A program made the translations under genes and the position numbers. A stretch of DNA of 48,126 nt. Origin: Boseongicola sp. (lineage in GTDB: Bacteria > Pseudomonadota > Alphaproteobacteria > Rhodobacterales > Rhodobacteraceae). The DNA lies in NCBI GenBank assembly GCA_028824715.1, contig JAPPCV010000130.1, forward strand, positions 1 through 48,126, written 5' to 3'. Shown here piece after piece: positions 40,533 through 48,126 of this stretch (the stretch's first letter is position 1; every line of letters starts with the position of its first letter). Under the pieces are notes generated by a model that was given only the letters and a program-made list of their open reading frames with translations, was not told the DNA's origin and made no database searches.

Positions 40533-41499
40533 GTCGTCTGTTCTCCCGGTAGTTTGTTTCGGGCGGTGCCCATTCACTTCATTGCAACCGCGATCCGTGT
40601 CATCTTCGACACGCGTCCCCCATAAGGTCAACGGCTGTCTGCGGCATCAAGTATAACGTTTGCGACATCAATTTCACCCAAAAACGACACTTCCGCGGGC
40701 ACTGCGTGGATTCAAGGTCGGGCCCGACACTGTCCGTGTGCGCGACCCAGGATGATTCGCTGCAGGATTGCGGTCACGTTGACCCGAGACCCGCGCCACG
40801 CCCTCCAGCCCGGGTCGCTCACCAATCCAAGGATTTCTGCACCGCCCGACGAACTGGAGCGGCGCTGCCTGCCTGCCGACGCCAATGACGGAACACGGTG
40901 CTCGATCGGCAGCAGTTCCCGGGCCCGGGAGCGGTGGGCGGGGAGAGCAACCGGTACGATCAGCAAGCGGCATGCCGCTGGCGAGAGTTCCCGGCACGAC
41001 TTGGCAGTGGCCCGCCCTGTCAGCGCCCGGCGGCAGCGATGCTTTGGTCACAATTGCGGCGAACGCACTCCCGTGGTCCGGCGCAAGGCGAACGCCACGT
41101 GACCCAAGGGCATCTGGCACGGCGAAACCGAACTTGGGCCGCCTATGCGGGGGCAGAGACCGGCTGACGCCGGACTCCTCTTCCTGGCGGGCAAGCCGGC
41201 CCGGGATCGAGCGTCCTTCAGCATCCGAAAGTCGGTGAAGGCGAACGGCATCGATTGCACGCGGTGCGCGGGGTGGTGAATCCAGCGCATTCCCGCCATC
41301 CGTTCCATCAGGCTCGGTCCCGAAGCGGTCATGGATCAGGACGGGCCAAATGATGGCGTACAGGAAATGCCAGGAAGGCCGCCATGATCGCCCTAACCTC
41401 TGGAGTTGCACTTCATGGAGGGAGGGGGCATTATCGTAAATGTACAATGCCTAAAATAGCGGAATGCAAAGAATCTCAAGCATCCGGGAAGGAGCAAAC
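40533..41499. other. Divergent spacer between the two binding-protein genes
   Basis: This 967-bp stretch separates two head-to-head transporters and is far longer than two promoters need. Long frames are open (40674-41447 minus, 40752-41102 plus), but none resembles a known protein. On the right side a possible promoter is TTGCAC (41406-41411), 17 bp, CATTAT (41429-41434). On the left side a TATACT lies near 40650 on the minus strand. Both are weak. The spacer may hold degraded sequence or an unrecognised gene. Confidence 0.4.
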
Positions 41500-43107
41500 A
41501 TGACGAAACGAAGCCAGGACTTGATTGACCGCCTTGCGCGGGAGGCACGGAAGGGTCGAGTTTCCCGCCGGGAGTTCATGCACCACTCGATTGTCGCGGG
41601 CGTGACCGCCACGACTGCGGCGGGTCTTTGGACCAGCAAGGTTGCAGCGCAGACCCCTAGTCGCGGCGGCACGTTCCGTGTTGCGCAGCATGACGGCAAT
41701 ACGTCGGACCAGCATGATCCCGGTCTCTATCAGTCGAACTTCGAGATTGCCTATACCCACACGGTCCGGGCATATTTGACAATGATCAATCAGGACGGAA
41801 CGCTTGGACCCGACGTCGCCTCGGAATGGTCAGCGACGCCGGACGCGATGGAGTGGACGTTCAAGATCAACGACCGCGCAACGTTCCACAGCGGCAAGAA
41901 AGTCACGACCGCCGACGTCGTTGCATCAATGAACCACCACCGTGGCGACGCGTCGACTTCTGCAGCCAAGGCGCTTCTGGCCTCTGTAGAGGATCTCGTC
42001 GACAACGGCGACGGCACGGTGACATTCAAGCTGGCCGCACCGAATGCCGACCTGCCGTGGATCATGCCGGACTATCACCTCGCGATCCTGCCGGATAACG
42101 GCGACGGCACTGTTGACTGGCAATCGGGCTTCGGTTGCGGTCCTTACAAGATGGTCGAACTGGAGTTTGGCGTCGGCGGACGGTTCGTGCGTCACGACGA
42201 CTGGCACGGCGACGGCGCGTATTTTGACGAGGTTGAGTTCCTCGTCATCAATGATCCGAATGCCCGCCAGACAGCGCTGATCACCGGGGATGTCGATGCC
42301 ACGAGCCTGCTCGAGAACAAGACCCTCGGGCTGCTTGGCCGAAACCCGAACGTTGAAATCGACAATGTCTCGTCGGCCCAGTGCATCACCATGCCGATGC
42401 ATGTCGACGTCGCGCCATTCGACAACCTGGACGTGCGAATGGCATTGAAACTGGCAATCAACCGCGAAGAACTGATCGAGAAGATCACCTTCGGCGCGGC
42501 GACGATCGGCAACGACTTCCACCATTCGCCAGCGATGCCGTACTTCCCGTCGGAAATTCCGCAGCGCGAATACGATCCCGACAAGGCCAAGTGGCACTTG
42601 GAACAGGCCGGCATGGACGGACTCTCGGTTGATTTCTCGACTGCGGATTCGATTACCACGGGTGCGGTCGACGCGGCGATTCTCTATGCGGAGCACGCCA
42701 AGGCTGCAGGGATCAACATCAACGTGGTGCGTGAACCGAACGACAGCTACTGGGCTGATGTCTGGCTGGTCAAGCCGTGGTGCATGGTCACCTGGGGCGC
42801 GCGCCCGACACCGGACGTGATGTACACGCTGGCTTACAAGGACGATGCGGCATGGAATGAATCGCACTGGAAGAACCCGCGGTTCAACGAGCTCCTGCTG
42901 CAGGCGAAGGCGGAACTGGACGACGCCAAGCGGGCCGAGATGTACCACGAGATGGGCATGTTGGCGCGCGATGACGGCGGCACGGTGATTCCTTACTTCC
43001 CGAACTTCGTCTATGGTCGCCGGTCCAACGTCAACCATATCGGCCAGCTTTCGCCAGCCTGGCAGATGGACGGGTACCGCCACGCAAGCCGATGGTGGTT
43101 CGCGTAG
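41500..43107 (+). CDS. Extracellular solute-binding protein family 5, Tat-exported (transporter 2)
   Basis: The 535-residue reading starts at MTKRSQDLIDRLAREARKG, with GGGAAGGAG five nt before ATG 41500. The twin-arginine signal SRREFMHHSIVAGVTATTAAG leads to a probable cleavage after VAAQ. The mature part shows SBP family 5 features: GTLGPDVASEWSATPDAMEWTFKINDRATFHSGKKVTTADVVASM, CGPYKMVELE, and VRMALKLAINREELIEK. It is related to the binding protein of transporter 1 in layout, but sequence identity by eye is low, so a different ligand is likely. It leads the plus-strand operon. Confidence 0.92.
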   Translation: MTKRSQDLIDRLAREARKGRVSRREFMHHSIVAGVTATTAAGLWTSKVAAQTPSRGGTFRVAQHDGNTSDQHDPGLYQSNFEIAYTHTVRAYLTMINQDGTLGPDVASEWSATPDAMEWTFKINDRATFHSGKKVTTADVVASMNHHRGDASTSAAKALLASVEDLVDNGDGTVTFKLAAPNADLPWIMPDYHLAILPDNGDGTVDWQSGFGCGPYKMVELEFGVGGRFVRHDDWHGDGAYFDEVEFLVINDPNARQTALITGDVDATSLLENKTLGLLGRNPNVEIDNVSSAQCITMPMHVDVAPFDNLDVRMALKLAINREELIEKITFGAATIGNDFHHSPAMPYFPSEIPQREYDPDKAKWHLEQAGMDGLSVDFSTADSITTGAVDAAILYAEHAKAAGININVVREPNDSYWADVWLVKPWCMVTWGARPTPDVMYTLAYKDDAAWNESHWKNPRFNELLLQAKAELDDAKRAEMYHEMGMLARDDGGTVIPYFPNFVYGRRSNVNHIGQLSPAWQMDGYRHASRWWFA

Positions 43108-43230: not shown

Positions 43231-44187
43231 ATGGGGGATATTCTGGGGCTGGTCGCAAAACGACTGGGCCTTGGACTGGTCACACTTCTTGTCGTGTCGG
43301 TCCTAATTTTCTTCGCGGTCGAATTGCTGCCCGGTGACATCGCCCAGGCCGTGCTCGGCCAGATGGCAACCGAGGAAACCCTTGCCAAGTTGCGCGAGGA
43401 GATGGGGCTCGAACGCCCGGCGGTCGTGCGTTACCTTGATTGGCTCGCCGGCGCGGTGACAGGCGATTTCGGCACTTCGCTCATTGACGGTGAACCGGTG
43501 ACCGCCAAGATCGCGGACCGCTTTGTCAGCACATTGTTCCTTGCCGCCTATGCGGCAGTGATCGCTGTCCCGTTTGCGATCGCGCTCGGCATCGTCGTCG
43601 CGCTCCTCCGGAATTCGATATTCGACCGGGTTGCGAACGTCGTGACACTGACTTCAATTTCTTCGCCAGAGTTCTTCCTCGGCTACATCCTGATCCTTTA
43701 TCTCGCCGTCAAGTGGAGCATGTTCCCTGCGATTGCGAGCCTTTCGTCAGGAATGACATTTCTGGAACTGCTCGAACGCACTTTCCTGCCCGCGCTGACG
43801 CTTGTGCTTGTCGTGACCGCGCACATGATGCGGATGACGCGCGCGGCGATCATCAACCTGCTTGCATCACCCTATATCGAGATGGCGCGGCTCAAGGGCG
43901 CACCGCCATGGAAAGTGATCGTGAGGCACGCGCTGCCCAACGCCTGGGCGCCCATCATCAACGTGGTGGCGCTGAACCTCGCGTATCTGGTCACCGGAGT
44001 GGTTCTGGTCGAGGTTGTGTTCGTCTATCCGGGTATCGGCCAGCTTCTGGTCGATGCAGTCGCGAAACGCGACTTCCCGATCGTGCAGGCGTGTTGCCTT
44101 ATCTTCGCGGCCACATTCATTCTCTTGAACCTGGCGGCGGATGTGGGGGCAATCCTCACGAATCCGCGCCTGCGGCATCCAAAGTGA
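43231..44187 (+). CDS. ABC importer permease, DppB type (transporter 2)
   Basis: The 318-residue permease begins MGDILGLVAKRLGLGLVTLLVVSVLIFFAVELLPGD, the classical DppB N-terminus. It has the periplasmic segment with LREEMGLERPAVVRYLDWLAGAVTGDFGTSL, the coupling loop EMARLKGAPPWKVIVRHALPNAWAP near residue 210, and the C-terminal YPGIGQLLVDAVAKRDFPIVQ. Length and motifs are standard, unlike its counterpart in transporter 1. CGGAGGGG lies 6 nt before the ATG. The next permease begins 11 bp after its stop. Confidence 0.93.
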   Translation: MGDILGLVAKRLGLGLVTLLVVSVLIFFAVELLPGDIAQAVLGQMATEETLAKLREEMGLERPAVVRYLDWLAGAVTGDFGTSLIDGEPVTAKIADRFVSTLFLAAYAAVIAVPFAIALGIVVALLRNSIFDRVANVVTLTSISSPEFFLGYILILYLAVKWSMFPAIASLSSGMTFLELLERTFLPALTLVLVVTAHMMRMTRAAIINLLASPYIEMARLKGAPPWKVIVRHALPNAWAPIINVVALNLAYLVTGVVLVEVVFVYPGIGQLLVDAVAKRDFPIVQACCLIFAATFILLNLAADVGAILTNPRLRHPK

Positions 44188-44197
44188 GGGCAGCATC

Positions 44198-45262
44198 ATG
44201 AGCATGTTTGTCATTGGATACTACGCCGCACTTATCGCCGCATCCTGCATCGCGGCCTATTTCCAGAACCGCAAAGCGTTCATGCTGCTCTTCTCGCTTA
44301 CGCTGGTCAGCTTCGTTCTCGGCATCGTCGGCGGCGTACCGGCATTGCGGGGCGTGACAATCTTCGCGGGCGTACTGGCCCTGGCTGCGGGAACCTCGTA
44401 CGCGTTCCGCGAATTCCTGATCCAGGTCTCCAGCCCTGCGGTCGCCAAGGAACTCAGGACCGCTCCCCTGACCGCGGCCTTCGGAATGTTCGTGATATTC
44501 ACCTATGCCATCGCGGGCATTTTCGCACCTTGGATCGCGCCTTTCGGTCAGTCGGAAGTAATCGCTTCGGCGTTTGAGCCGCCGAACGAAACCATGCTTC
44601 TCGGTGCTGACCAGCTTGGTCGCGACATGTTCAGCCGCATCATCTACGGTGCCCGCAACTCCGTCGGGCTGGCGCTTGTCGCTACCGTCCTGGCATTCCT
44701 GATCGGTGCGCTGGCCGGTCTCTATTCTGCCGTCAAGGGTGGCTGGCTGGATCAGCTGTCAGGTCGTGTGGCCGATGTGATCATGTCGGTTCCGTCACTC
44801 ATTTTCGCACTTCTGATCTTGTCCATCTTCGGCACCAAGCTCTGGGTGATTGTCCTCGTCGTCGCGATCATCTACTCGCCGCGCGTCTTTCGACTGACCC
44901 GCGCGGTTGCCGGAAGCGTGGTCGTCATGGACTATGTCGAGGCGGCAAAGGTGCGGGGCGAAGGCGATTGGCATCTGATCCGCAAGGAGATCCTGCCGAA
45001 TTCCACGGCACCGCTGATTGCCGAGTTCGGACTGGAGTTTTGCTTCGTGTTCCTGCTGATCGCCGGCCTGAGCTTCCTTGGTCTGGGCATTCAGCCACCT
45101 ACCGCGGATTGGGGTTCCATGGTGCGTGAGAATGCGACGCTGATTTCGTTCGGCGACATCACGCCCTTGATTCCGGCAGCCGCCATCGCGCTGCTAACCG
45201 TCGCTGTGAACTTTGTCGTTGACTGGATGCTTTTCCGGTCATCCGGCCTGAAGGAGCAATGA
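44198..45262 (+). CDS. ABC importer permease, DppC type (transporter 2)
   Basis: The 354-residue reading starts at MSMFVIGYYAALIAASCIAAYF (ATG 44198, GAGGG upstream). About 90 N-terminal residues add three hydrophobic segments before the usual DppC start (LTAAFGMFVIFTYAIAGIFAPWIAPFG). The permease core has LLGADQLGRDMFSRIIYGARNSVGLAL and the coupling loop DYVEAAKVRGEGDWHLIRKEILPNSTAPLI, ending SFLGLGIQPPTADWG. Its stop TGA (45260-45262) follows AAGGAGCAA, which would have been the ribosome site of the ATPase gene before the IscB element entered. Confidence 0.92.
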   Translation: MSMFVIGYYAALIAASCIAAYFQNRKAFMLLFSLTLVSFVLGIVGGVPALRGVTIFAGVLALAAGTSYAFREFLIQVSSPAVAKELRTAPLTAAFGMFVIFTYAIAGIFAPWIAPFGQSEVIASAFEPPNETMLLGADQLGRDMFSRIIYGARNSVGLALVATVLAFLIGALAGLYSAVKGGWLDQLSGRVADVIMSVPSLIFALLILSIFGTKLWVIVLVVAIIYSPRVFRLTRAVAGSVVVMDYVEAAKVRGEGDWHLIRKEILPNSTAPLIAEFGLEFCFVFLLIAGLSFLGLGIQPPTADWGSMVRENATLISFGDITPLIPAAAIALLTVAVNFVVDWMLFRSSGLKEQ

Positions 45263-45271
45263 CGTCAGCGA

Positions 45272-45291
45272 CCCCTCCCTGAAGGGAGGGG
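45272..45291 (+). repeat. Left-end hairpin of the IscB element
   Basis: A perfect 9-bp stem, CCCCTCCCT and AGGGAGGGG, surrounds GA. The tip CCTGAAGG also appears in the right-end hairpin and in the three repeats near the tnpB remnant. Subterminal palindromes of this kind are what TnpA transposases recognise in IS200/IS605 elements. Confidence 0.8.
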
Positions 45292-45597
45292 CTTGAGGAA
45301 CGAAAGTTCCGGGAGCCCGCGCTGACCAGCACAGGAAAGGAGACTGTCATCCAATCCACCCTGAACCATGCGTTGAAGACCAACCCCGGGATGCTTCCTC
45401 AGTCCCGGGCTCTTGAAGATTCGTCAGCAGACACGCCGGGTCAGGCACGGTTTGCTTCCGAACCGCTTGCGGCGATCGGTCCGGTGGACCGATCGGGAAG
45501 CAAACGGGCGAATCGTGATGCGGGTGGTCAGGTTGTGCGAGGGGAGACCGGCTTCGGCCGGCGTCACCGGGGAAGCGCGAGCGACCCCGAGAGCGGC
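45292..45597 (+). ncRNA. Probable omega-RNA (IscB guide RNA scaffold)
   Basis: IscB uses an RNA encoded directly upstream of its gene. This stretch has no other gene and folds richly. GGAAC/GTTCC has a GAAA loop (45297-45310). CCCGGGA/TCCCGGG forms a stem (45385-45409). A nested structure pairs GTTTGCTTCC/GGAAGCAAAC outside with CGATCGGTCC/GGACCGATCG inside (45450-45505). CCGGC-TTCG-GCCGG lies at 45548-45561. The two nested 10-bp stems are perfect. In IscB systems the guide lies at the 5-prime end, so it would be read from the end of the permease gene. Exact RNA ends are unknown. Confidence 0.7.
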
Positions 45598-46968
45598 GTG
45601 AGCCGCGTCTTCGTCCTGGACCGGCGGGGCGCCCCGCTGATGCCGTGCCACCCGGCCAGGGCGAGAAAGCTCCTGGGCAAGGGCCGCGCCGTCGTGGTGC
45701 GGCTCCATCCCTTCACGATCCGTCTCCGGGACCGGGTCGGAGGGGAGACCCGGGAGGTCGGGCTGAAGGTTGATCCCGGCGCGAAGACCACCGGCCTGGC
45801 GCTGGTGCGGGAGGACGGCGAGGTCCTGTTCCTGGCCGAGATCGAGCACAGGGGAGCAAGGATCAGAAAGGCGATGCAGCAACGGCGCAACTACCGGCGG
45901 CGCCGGCGCTCGGCCAACCTGCGCTACCGGAAGAAGCGGTTCCTGAACCGGCGCTCCGGCAGGAAGCTCCCGCCCTCGCTGCAGTCGAGGGTCGACAACG
46001 TGGCCTCGTGGACGGAGCGGCTGCGCGGGCGCGCGCCCGTGACCTCCATCGCGTGCGAGACCGTCCGGTTCGACACCCGGGCGCTGGAGAACCCGGAGAT
46101 CGCAGGCGCGGAGTACCAGCAAGGAACCCTTGCCGGCTACGAGGTCAGGGAATGCCTGCTCGAGAAGTGGGGACGGAAATGCGCCTATTGCGGCGCCACG
46201 GACACGCCGCTGCAAATCGACCACGTGCGTCCGAAGGCAAGGGGCGGCTCCGACCGGGTCTCGAACCTGGCCCTCGCGTGCCGGCCCTGCAACCAGGCCA
46301 AGGGCGCGCAGCCCGTGGAGGCCTTCTTGGCCGCCCGCCCGGAGCGTCTCCGGAAGGTGCTGGCGCAGGCGAAAGCGCCGCTCTCCGCCGCCGCCGCGGT
46401 CAACGCCACGCGCCGCGTCCTGTTCGAGGCATTGAAGCGGACGGGGCTTCCCGTCACCGGCGCCTCGGGCGGGCGGACGAAGTTCAACCGCACGCGGCTG
46501 GGGATCCCGAAGTCGCATGCCCTCGACGCCGCCTGCGTCGGCGAGACGCCGGCGCTGAAGGGCTGGAGGCAGCCCGTGCTCGCGATCAGGGCCATGGGCC
46601 GGGGCGCGTATGCGCGGACCCGCGTGAACCGGTTCGGCTTTCCCGTCGGCCACCTGATGGCGGAGAAGTCCGTGCGAGGCTTCCGCACGGGCGACATCGT
46701 GCGCGCGACCGTGCCCTCGGGAAAGAGCCGGGGCGTCCACGTGGGCCGTGTCGCGGTGCGCCGGACCGGCTCCTTCAACGTCCAGACCGCGCAGGGGACG
46801 GTGCAGGGGATCTCGCACCGGCACTGCCGCGTCGTCCAGCGCGCCGACGGCTACGGATACGTCCTCGAGACGTCACGGAAAGAGGAGACGACAACGATGC
46901 ACGGAACACGGGAGCCCGCATTCCTCCCCGCCCTGAAGGACGGGGTTTCCTGCGGGGTGATTCGATGA
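45598..46968 (+). CDS. iscB: IscB RNA-guided nuclease
   Basis: IscB is the omega-RNA-guided DNA endonuclease family ancestral to Cas9. Counting from GTG 45598 (456 residues), the order is: N-terminal PLMP domain (residues 13-16), Ruv[12 protein letters not shown] with Asp59, an arginine-rich bridge helix (85-115), and Ruv[11 protein letters not shown] with Glu154. The HNH domain follows (195-236), with zinc cysteines 195, 198, 228 and 231 and DH at 208-209. RuvC-III HALDAA has His308 and Asp310, and a C-terminal target-motif domain ends in RADGYGY. All catalytic residues are present. The frame is open 75 codons upstream, but that part is the omega-RNA. About 35 final residues are translated from the right end of the element, and the stop overlaps the next ATG. 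Confidence 0.93.
46926..46945 (+). repeat. Right-end hairpin of the IscB element
   Basis: Arms CCCCGCCCT and AGGACGGGG with one mismatch surround GA, the same shape and tip as the left end. It lies within the iscB reading frame, so the protein C-terminus includes its translation. Confidence 0.78.
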
Positions 46969-48126
46969 GCAAGTACCAGAACAAAGGCGTTCTCCTGGAA
47001 ATTCGCGACCTCAAGATCGACGGCTATGCAGACGAGACATGGGTCCCGATCATCAAAGGTGTCGACCTGACGCTCCGCCGCGGCGAGGTGCTTGGCCTGA
47101 TCGGCGAATCCGGTGCCGGCAAGTCCACGATCGGGGCCGCGGCGATGGGCTATGCTCGCGACGGAACGCGAATTTCCGAAGGGTCGATCGAATTTGACGG
47201 CATGGAACTAACCACGGCCACGTCGGCAGAAAAACGTGCGTTGCGAGGGTCGCGCATTGCCTATGTCGCTCAGTCGGCAGCTGCGAGCTTCAATCCCGCG
47301 CACAAGTTGATCGACCAGCACACCGAGGCACCACTGCACTACCGCATCAAGAAGCGAATGGAAGCCCAGGAAGACGCCATGGAGCTTTATGAGCGCCTGC
47401 GACTCCCAAATCCGACCGAAATCGGCTTCCGTTATCCGCACCAGGTTTCAGGCGGACAGTTGCAACGGGCGATGACCGCCATGGCCATGTCCTGCCGACC
47501 CGACCTGATCATCTTTGACGAGCCAACGACCGCCCTTGACGTAACAACGCAAATCGAGGTTCTCGCTGCGATTCGCGACATCGTCGATCAGTTCGATACA
47601 GCCGCAATTTACATCACTCACGATCTTGCGGTAGTCGCGCAGATGGCTGACACGATAAAGGTGCTCCTGAAGGGCGAAGAGGTGGAGAACGCCTCGACAG
47701 AGAAAATGCTCGACGCGCCCAAAGAGGAGTACACAAAGTCGCTTTGGGCCGTTCGCAGCTACAAGCGCCCGCAAAAATCGCGCCCCGAGGATGGCAGCAA
47801 GCCGGTGATTTCCGTTCAGGGCATCGATGCGGCTTACACTGGCGGCGCCAAGGTGCTCGATGACGTTTCCTTCGAAATCTATCCCGGCATGACCGTGGCA
47901 GTCGTTGGCGAGTCGGGCTCCGGAAAGTCGACGGCTGCCCGCGTCATCACGGGCTTGCTGCCACCAATGAGCGGCGAGGTCCTTTGTCGGGGCGAAGCCC
48001 TGCCGCCACGTTATCAGGATCGCACCAGGGAACAGCTTCGTCAGGCGCAGATGATCTACCAGATGGCGGACACGGCGCTGAATCCCAAGAGCCGAATCAG
48101 CGACATCATTGGCCGCCCGGCGCAGT
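46965..48126 (+). CDS. ABC importer ATPase with two fused nucleotide-binding domains (transporter 2), partial
   Basis: The gene runs off the right edge, and 387 codons are visible. It begins [20 protein letters not shown]. Domain 1 has Walker [11 protein letters not shown]-loop [15 protein letters not shown], signature VSGGQLQR, Walker [13 protein letters not shown] and the H-loop YITHDLAV. Domain 2 starts near residue 278 with Walker [10 protein letters not shown] and the Q-loop [13 protein letters not shown] before the sequence ends. It corresponds to the fused ATPase of transporter 1. The start ATG now overlaps the iscB stop. Its former ribosome site, AAGGAG at the end of the permease gene, is 1.7 kb away, so translation depends on sequence supplied by the element. 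Confidence 0.93.

What the first reader, a model, noticed from the sequence alone, without database searches (positions are those of the whole stretch)
45263..46964. Intact IscB element inserted exactly at a stop/start overlap in a transporter operon
All RuvC and HNH catalytic residues are visible, both end hairpins are present and the upstream non-coding part is structured. Removing the element joins the permease stop and ATPase start as AAGGAGCAATGAGCAAG, an ATGA overlap preceded by a good ribosome site. This shows where and how it inserted and that the host operon was otherwise preserved.
Basis: partly seen in the sequence, partly recalled or inferred. Interest (0 to 1): 0.85.

Follow-up and report, generated by a model that had tools for sequence, protein, structure and literature searches.

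The report
IscB element docked at start codon
A small mobile DNA element carrying an RNA-guided DNA cutter has inserted immediately before the start codon of a transporter gene and takes its own stop codon from that start codon, and most sister copies in related bacteria also sit at gene starts, which may be how it spreads without breaking its host's genes.

Summary
The element is a 1,701-bp IscB/HEARO-like (OMEGA) element at 45264-46964 with an intact-looking nuclease gene, a HEARO-like 5' part and two subterminal hairpins. Three of five genus relatives holding the operon carry the empty site AAGGAGCAATGAC|ATGAGCAAG: permease stop, one spacer base, ATPase start. No ATGA overlap existed; the insertion made one. 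The iscB frame runs to the last base of the element and its stop TGA lies in the host ATGA that is also the ATPase start. This is a pattern. In the genus 35 of 37 distinct right-end sites read ATGA and 31 of 37 open a frame of at least 80 codons; 25-26 of those 31 have a family match placed as in a true N-terminus (18 of 430 ATGA sites, 4.2%, are starts in an annotated relative's plasmid). Of six further insertions compared with empty sites, five rejoin at the start codon. Copies without iscB dock there too, so docking does not depend on iscB being translated. Evidence outside the genus is weaker. The family is known; start-codon docking with a borrowed stop was not found in my ten paper searches. 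Translational coupling is inferred.

The parts
45264..46964 (+). Whole IscB/HEARO-like element, 1,701 bp, no target-site duplication
   Evidence: limits from sister copies and exact empty sites in G001, G002, G003
45264..45547 (+). HEARO-like (omega-RNA) scaffold region
   Evidence: RF02033, 71.6 bits, 57.8 bits for 45264-45459, both below the 83-bit gathering score; consensus fold of the first 190 nt of 25 copies, 32 pairs, 9 with a change on both sides
45248..45263 (+). presumed guide source: host sequence immediately 5' of the scaffold; contains the old Shine-Dalgarno of the ATPase. Length about 16-20 nt
   Evidence: inference; a 20-nt guide duplex is described for IsrB (PMC9581776, passages); not tested
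45272..45291 (+). left subterminal hairpin sequence CCCCTCCC-TGAA-GGGAGGGG
   Evidence: sequence; inner 5 pairs in the RNA fold
45598..46968 (+). iscB, GTG start, 456 aa; the frame crosses the right end and its stop TGA 46966-46968 lies in host DNA
   Evidence: the GTG start is chosen because the conserved N-terminus begins there and is not proven
46926..46945 (+). right subterminal hairpin sequence CCCCGCC-CTGAA-GGACGGGG, inside the iscB frame
   Evidence: sequence, fold with one bulge
46965..46968 (+). ATGA: target motif and presumed TAM, start codon of the ATPase and stop codon of iscB at once
44198..45262 (+). upstream host gene: ABC permease (OppC/DppC-like), stop TGA 45260-45262
   Evidence: PF00528 E 7.1e-33; orthologs
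46965..48126 (+). downstream host gene: ABC ATPase (runs off the window)
   Evidence: PF00005 E 1.1e-40; same start codon in G001-G003
45251..45256 (+). AAGGAG, the Shine-Dalgarno that stood 7 nt before the ATPase start in the empty site and is now 1.7 kb away
   Evidence: empty-site comparison

Best explanation
This is an IscB-coding, HEARO-like OMEGA element of the ISC (IS200/IS605-like) type that inserted without target duplication directly before an ATGA whose ATG is the start codon of a host gene. The four target bases serve as insertion/TAM motif, as host start codon and as source of the iscB stop codon. iscB has no stop of its own and its frame is in the one phase in which an ATGA target must end it, so insertion at an ATGA start makes a TGATG or ATGA stop/start overlap between iscB and the host gene. 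Ribosomes finishing iscB could then re-initiate on the host gene although its own Shine-Dalgarno has been moved away. Shown: identity, boundaries, empty sites, start-codon docking in the genus, the borrowed stop. Inferred: that ATGA is the TAM of this IscB, that the upstream flank is the guide, that coupling keeps the host gene translated, and that the nuclease helps keep the element by cutting emptied sites.
For: Exact empty sites in 3 relatives for the window copy. For 6 further insertions of this genome, left and right contigs pair on empty sites of relatives, and 5 of 6 rejoin at the start codon. 37 distinct right-end sites in 8 genomes: 35 ATGA, 1 GTGA, 1 AGGA; 31 of 37 open at least 80 codons. 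All 31 frames were scanned and I judge 26 to have a match placed as in a true N-terminus (25 without L100, which rests on a minor hit; in four of the 26 the match begins only 48-63 residues in; several NCBIfam hits are under the curated cut-off). Base rate 18 of 430 ATGA sites at annotated starts in 50 kb of a Dinoroseobacter plasmid. Left flanks carry a Shine-Dalgarno core in 15 of 38, against 4 of 38 in a window further upstream and 15% of random 18-mers; annotated starts give 30 of 57. The iscB-phase frame ends at the junction in 23 of 23 chosen right ends and in 37 of 37 sites. The spacings, -1 and -4, are among those enriched in gene pairs, and coupling works best from -4 to +3 (PMC12548453, passages). 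One IsrB has an NTGA TAM (PMC9581776, passages).
Against: No expression, cleavage or mobility data. The 23 of 23 and 37 of 37 are not independent: once the target is ATGA, this phase must stop there, so they show one property of the right end (phase, and a frame open up to it), not 37 events; several contigs hold only the last 15-61 codons. Copies without iscB dock at starts as well; 10 of 13 have a stop in that phase, mostly near the left end, and their differences are not concentrated at third codon positions, so docking does not depend on translating iscB. Six of 37 sites are doubtful or not starts: L008, L080, L118 (AGGA), L148, the L027 group and the 55-codon L026 group. One of the six reconstructed insertions has its left junction at another ATGA about 54 nt upstream of the start. 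Outside the genus, 8 of 20 annotated plasmid loci fit, two nearly, ten not, and many IscB genes, above all cyanobacterial ones, stop before the right hairpin. Other IsrB proteins take NTG or NTGG TAMs. No Y1 transposase match in this genome. Selection against other sites could give much of the bias.
Confidence: 0.75

Rival explanations
1. Start codons are not targeted. Insertion occurs at any ATGA; copies inside genes are lost by selection and copies before start codons survive because they do little harm.
For: ATGA is nearly fixed (35 of 37); 381 of 430 ATGA sites in a related plasmid are neither starts nor intergenic; a few non-start insertions exist; Shine-Dalgarno content of insertion sites is no higher than at ordinary starts (15 of 38 against 30 of 57).
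Against: If only starts and intergenic ATGA sites were tolerated, 18 of 49 (37%) would be starts; 26 or 32 of 37 gives binomial p 3.5e-5 or 6e-10 (my counts typed in, one 50-kb stretch of another genus as yardstick, and its gene table may be incomplete). A flush insertion also takes the gene away from its Shine-Dalgarno, so it should not be safer than an intergenic one unless something compensates.
Confidence: 0.45
2. One reading: the element went into a pre-existing ATGA overlap of permease stop and ATPase start.
For: ATGA stands on both sides of the element (45259-45262 and 46965-46968).
Against: Empty sites read CAATGACATGAGC in G001, G002 and G003, CAATGAGATGAGC in G005 and CAATGATGTGAAC in G006. 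Other copies begin at GTCAGCG without ATGA before it.
Confidence: 0.02
3. The element is a domesticated leader or regulator of the transporter operon rather than a mobile element.
For: It sits in the operon in sense orientation. Related copies without iscB (258-447 bp) sit at the same start codons in more than one species, which suggests retention of those.
Against: The site is empty in the closest relatives. The genome holds 18 other fragments of at least 95% identity to this element, 14 of them at contig ends, which points to recent multiplication.
Confidence: 0.05

Closest known systems
IscB OMEGA nucleases with HEARO/omega-RNA, ISC group of IS200/IS605-like elements
   Same: RRXRR/PLMP N-terminus, RuvC with HNH, structured RNA directly upstream of the gene, subterminal hairpins, no target duplication, one-sided short target motif
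   Different: iscB frame extended through the right hairpin to the last base, stop codon from the target, right end flush with host start codons. I recall, but could not read, that HEARO elements were described in 2009 as sitting next to ATGA/GTGA
DtIsrB, HNH-less relative
   Same: NTGA TAM, TTGA preferred at 60 C (PMC9581776, passages)
   Different: lacks HNH; other IsrB orthologs take NTG or NTGG; the TAM of the window's IscB is only inferred
IS elements whose transposase stop codon is made by the target, such as IS870 (recalled, not checked)
   Same: the element supplies no stop codon of its own
   Different: here the same target bases are also a host start codon, so a stop/start pair results
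NTGA and TGATG overlapping gene pairs (PMC12548453, passages)
   Same: identical spacing, -4 and -1
   Different: here the spacing arises in one step by insertion of a mobile element; coupling is not shown

Membership tests
IscB (RNA-guided OMEGA nuclease) | RRXRR/PLMP N-terminal domain | tested here: met
   PF14239 E 3.5e-66
IscB (RNA-guided OMEGA nuclease) | RuvC motifs and an HNH domain with catalytic residues | tested here: met
   HNH PF01844 E 4.1e-13; D59, E154, H209, N223, H307, D310 invariant in 21 sequences; aligned to PDB IscB chains. That these are the catalytic positions is from general knowledge of the folds
IscB (RNA-guided OMEGA nuclease) | curated family score | tested here: met
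   NF040563 433.6 bits, cut-off 175
IscB (RNA-guided OMEGA nuclease) | guided cleavage next to a TAM | not testable with these tools
   needs biochemistry
HEARO / omega-RNA (RF02033) | covariance-model score over the gathering threshold | tested here: not met
   57.8 and 71.6 bits against 83; best in the genus 82.7, none of 8 genomes over it. Full-length match at the right place; I call it HEARO-like
HEARO / omega-RNA (RF02033) | conserved secondary structure | tested here: met
   93.4% of cells paired against 31-54% with partners slid; 41 cells changed on both sides against 17.4 in shuffles (0 of 500); but pairs with such a change (9 against 6.8, 66 of 500) and further pair types (220 of 500) are not clearly above shuffles
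IS200/IS605-like ISC element | subterminal hairpins, one-sided target, no target duplication | tested here: met
IS200/IS605-like ISC element | mobilised by a Y1 (HUH) TnpA | tested here: inconclusive
   no PF01797 match in this genome; 2 of 8 genus genomes have a partial match over the cut-off. It may act in trans, be lost or be unassembled

The most novel reading that the evidence does not exclude
IscB/HEARO elements as a class dock at start codons as an evolved, operon-transparent strategy: the NTGA target/TAM coincides with the NTG-A context of gene starts, and in one group the nuclease gene gave up its own stop codon so that insertion rebuilds a stop/start overlap and keeps the host gene translated. 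A stronger form, also not excluded, is that the guide, which carries the Shine-Dalgarno region of the last host gene, biases later insertions to other gene starts.
Probability: 0.35. Interest if true: 0.8.

Novelty: new variant of a known kind. Interest (0 to 1): 0.62.

Why it matters
IscB is held to be the ancestor of Cas9, and how such elements multiply without harming their hosts is, as far as I know, poorly explained. If docking at start codons with a borrowed stop is general, it offers a testable answer. It would also link the NTGA-like target motifs of IscB/IsrB to gene starts, let boundaries and guides be predicted from annotated genes, and warn annotators that such iscB stop codons belong to the host.

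Tried and rejected
A pre-existing ATGA overlap was rejected by empty sites. Limits 45263-46964 or 45259-46964 were rejected by sister copies. Open-frame length alone is a poor test of start codons, since 610 of 1,408 ATGA sites in the same DNA open at least 60 codons; I added protein-family placement, annotated starts and empty sites. My hairpin detector found no terminal hairpin in 47 of 80 named loci and a hairpin without RTGA in 2; of 28 with RTGA within 40 nt, 19 open at least 60 codons, but L178 belongs to the genus set and L230 and L232 look like wrong hairpins, so this is only indicative. Insertion sites do not have more Shine-Dalgarno content than ordinary starts; for that count 50 left flanks were merged to 38, imperfectly (L126 and L127 look like one site). 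I asked whether copies without iscB show coding constraint in the iscB phase: they do not. The promoter and terminator scan found nothing. HgcC and sot0042 matches on the minus strand are below their gathering scores and I take them as hairpin look-alikes. Structure prediction was not run.

Full report
What is there. The window lies in a 5.24-Mb, 181-contig genome, 98% complete. A genus mate, G005, is very likely Boseongicola sp. SB0665_bin_10: its contigs of 74,847, 20,018 and 80,801 bases have the lengths and matches of VXSG01 records. An ABC operon of the oligopeptide/nickel kind (binding protein 41464-43107, permeases 43231-44187 and 44198-45262, ATPase from 46965) is interrupted between the second permease and the ATPase by a 1,701-bp element.

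The nuclease. The frame 45598-46968 (456 aa) is IscB by NCBIfam (433.6 bits, cut-off 175), with RRXRR and HNH domains in Pfam; the best PDB matches are IscB chains. In an alignment with 20 relatives D59, E154, H307, D310, H209, N223 and four cysteines are invariant. That these are the RuvC, HNH and zinc positions is general knowledge of the folds plus the alignment. Nothing in the sequence speaks against activity, which was not tested.

The RNA. HEARO RF02033 matches from exactly 45264, at 57.8 bits or 71.6 bits to 45547, below Rfam's 83 bits; no match in the 8 genus genomes is over it (best 82.7). In 25 left ends a consensus fold has 32 pairs. 93.4% of cells are paired, against 31-54% when partners are slid, and 41 cells are changed on both sides against 17.4 in shuffles (0 of 500); two further measures do not clearly exceed shuffles (66 and 220 of 500). 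I call it HEARO-like.

Boundaries and empty site. Near-identical sister copies share GTCAGCG at the left, preceded by variable bases, and end just before ATGA at the right. Removing 45264-46964 predicts AAGGAGCAATGAC|ATGAGCAAG. Of eight ortholog junctions printed, G001, G002 and G003 have exactly this; G005 and G006, also of the genus, differ at the spacer and are empty; G014, G021 and G016, of the family, are more diverged and empty. The old arrangement was stop TGA, one base, ATG, with AAGGAG 7 nt before the ATG.

Docking at start codons. The genus-wide search found the family in 8 of 8 genomes. I fetched 60 regions, not every listed place, besides the loci given by the searches. Right ends gave 37 distinct sites after merging orthologs: 35 ATGA, 1 GTGA, 1 AGGA; 31 of 37 open at least 80 codons. 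All 31 frames were scanned (10 against NCBIfam, 20 against Pfam, the ATPase). I judge 26 to have a match that starts near the profile's beginning and within the first 63 residues, for example MTA phosphorylase, aspartate dehydrogenase, 3-hydroxybutyryl-CoA dehydrogenase, AroB, ClpP and the small subunit of exonuclease VII. L100 rests on a minor hit, four begin 48-63 residues in, and several NCBIfam hits are under their curated cut-offs. The rest: no match (L004, L006, L081), a C-terminal match only (L087), a weak match (L083). In 50 kb of an annotated Dinoroseobacter plasmid 18 of 430 ATGA sites are starts and 31 are intergenic. Against that, 26 of 37 has p 8e-28 if any ATGA is allowed and 3.5e-5 if only starts and intergenic sites survive. 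The yardstick is small, from another genus, and its gene table may be incomplete.

Six more empty sites. The right flanks of six other insertions in this genome (L002-L007) were sought in the genus. Each has a partner contig whose left end matches the region upstream of the empty site in relatives. L014-L002, L012-L003, L015-L004, L011-L005 and L016-L006 rejoin at the start codon; for L011-L005 the alignment reaches the last bases only against the shorter relative. In several relatives of the L006 site the fourth base is not A. For L017-L007 the right end is flush with the start but the left flank stops at another ATGA about 54 nt upstream; two neighbouring insertions with an unassembled piece between them, or a deletion, would explain it.

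The borrowed stop. In the window iscB reads ATT CG|A TGA, so its stop lies in host DNA. In 23 right ends that I chose from the 37 sites the same phase ends at the junction, 14 as TG|A and 9 in the host ATGA; one of the 23 (L028) belongs to a copy without iscB and one (L118) has AGGA as target. Over all 37 sites it is 16 and 21. Given an ATGA target this follows from the phase alone, so the count shows one property of the right end, not independent events. The frame is open over the whole gene in the window, L081 and L082, and open to the contig end in 19 other sites, two of which (L116, L133) look like copies without iscB and several of which hold only 15-61 codons. The overlaps have spacing -1 or -4; a review (PMC12548453, passages) says -4 (NTGA) is by far the commonest spacing motif of close gene pairs, -1 and -8 are enriched to a lesser extent, coupling is most efficient from -4 to +3, and the mechanism is not firmly established. 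Re-initiation here is inference.

A result against making coupling through iscB the whole story. Copies without iscB also abut ATGA or GTGA: at eight sites with both ends on one contig (L010, L020, L083, L106, L112, L148, L158, L160; 258-498 bp) seven open at least 80 codons downstream. Among 13 such copies, orthologs included and L104 without a usable right end, 10 have at least one stop in the iscB phase, mostly near the left end, so that long frames remain (104-162 codons in most of the eight), but differences between copies are spread over the three codon positions. I see no sign that these frames are kept for a protein; how their host genes are translated is open.

Wider view. Of 80 IscB loci from named genomes (the best 80 of 164), 18 have a start with at least 60 codons at -4 or -1 from the iscB stop; three are from the genus (L171, L178, and L170 by its match and position), and L190 looks internal. 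In others the gene stops earlier and an ATGA or GTGA start follows 25-90 nt later, for example what I read as galE (L173) and mutS2 (L189). In 20 annotated plasmid loci, taken from 56 records with a match, the next annotated CDS begins with NTGA at the apparent right end in 8 (L250, L251, L254, L255, L256, L258, L260, L264); two are close (L252, L262), ten are not. Boundaries there are read from hairpins, not from empty sites.

Mechanism. DtIsrB uses an NTGA TAM with Arg and Gln reading G and A; other IsrB proteins take NTG or NTGG (PMC9581776, passages). If this IscB uses NTGA, the empty site carries guide match and TAM side by side, and the RNP could cut emptied sites so that the element is copied back, as I recall is proposed for TnpB. 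How the element moves is open: no Y1 transposase match in this genome, partial ones over the cut-off in 2 of 8 genus genomes.

Literature. Ten searches, several with capped lists, showed no paper on IscB or HEARO insertion at start codons, judged by title and abstract start. PMC9755519 was seen in passages and one short section, PMC9581776 and PMC12548453 in passages. Weinberg 2009 and Kapitonov 2016 are not held; I recall that the first gives ATGA/GTGA as the HEARO integration context, so the motif itself is probably not new.

Verdict. A new member of a known family whose combination of start-codon docking and target-supplied stop is, as far as my searches go, a new variant in behaviour.

Noticed in passing
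L010/L028 and L120 (447 bp), L020 and L097 (447 bp), L112 and L139 (432, 427 bp), L158 and L163 (258, 259 bp); Copies without iscB that keep both ends sit at the same start codons in more than one species, several before substrate-binding-protein or ABC genes; they show no coding constraint and may be old non-autonomous copies kept as leaders.
   Followed up: partly
L256 (Trichormus plasmid) and L260 (Deinococcus plasmid): In two phyla an iscB lies between parA and parB, with parB starting ATGA at the apparent right end; probably independent insertions at the same kind of start codon.
   Followed up: no
genomes G000 and G005: Many closely similar copies (about 92-100%) but no Y1_Tnp match in these genomes, each rated 98% complete; many G000 contigs break inside the element, so copies are probably collapsed in assembly.
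   Followed up: partly
L027, L099, L161, L166; Four similar element ends sit before a conserved 18-codon frame (M...CQHVAR.G...P), which looks like a leader peptide rather than a gene; a second ATG lies about 25 nt further on.
   Followed up: no
L017 (G000:C138) and L007 (G000:C122): Left junction at an ATGA about 54 nt upstream of the start codon that the right junction abuts; two neighbouring insertions or a deletion.
   Followed up: partly
G000:C65:70977-71969, also G002, G003, G005: A second permease homolog shows one TAG inside the match in four genomes of the genus; it may be two genes in one frame or something else.
   Followed up: no
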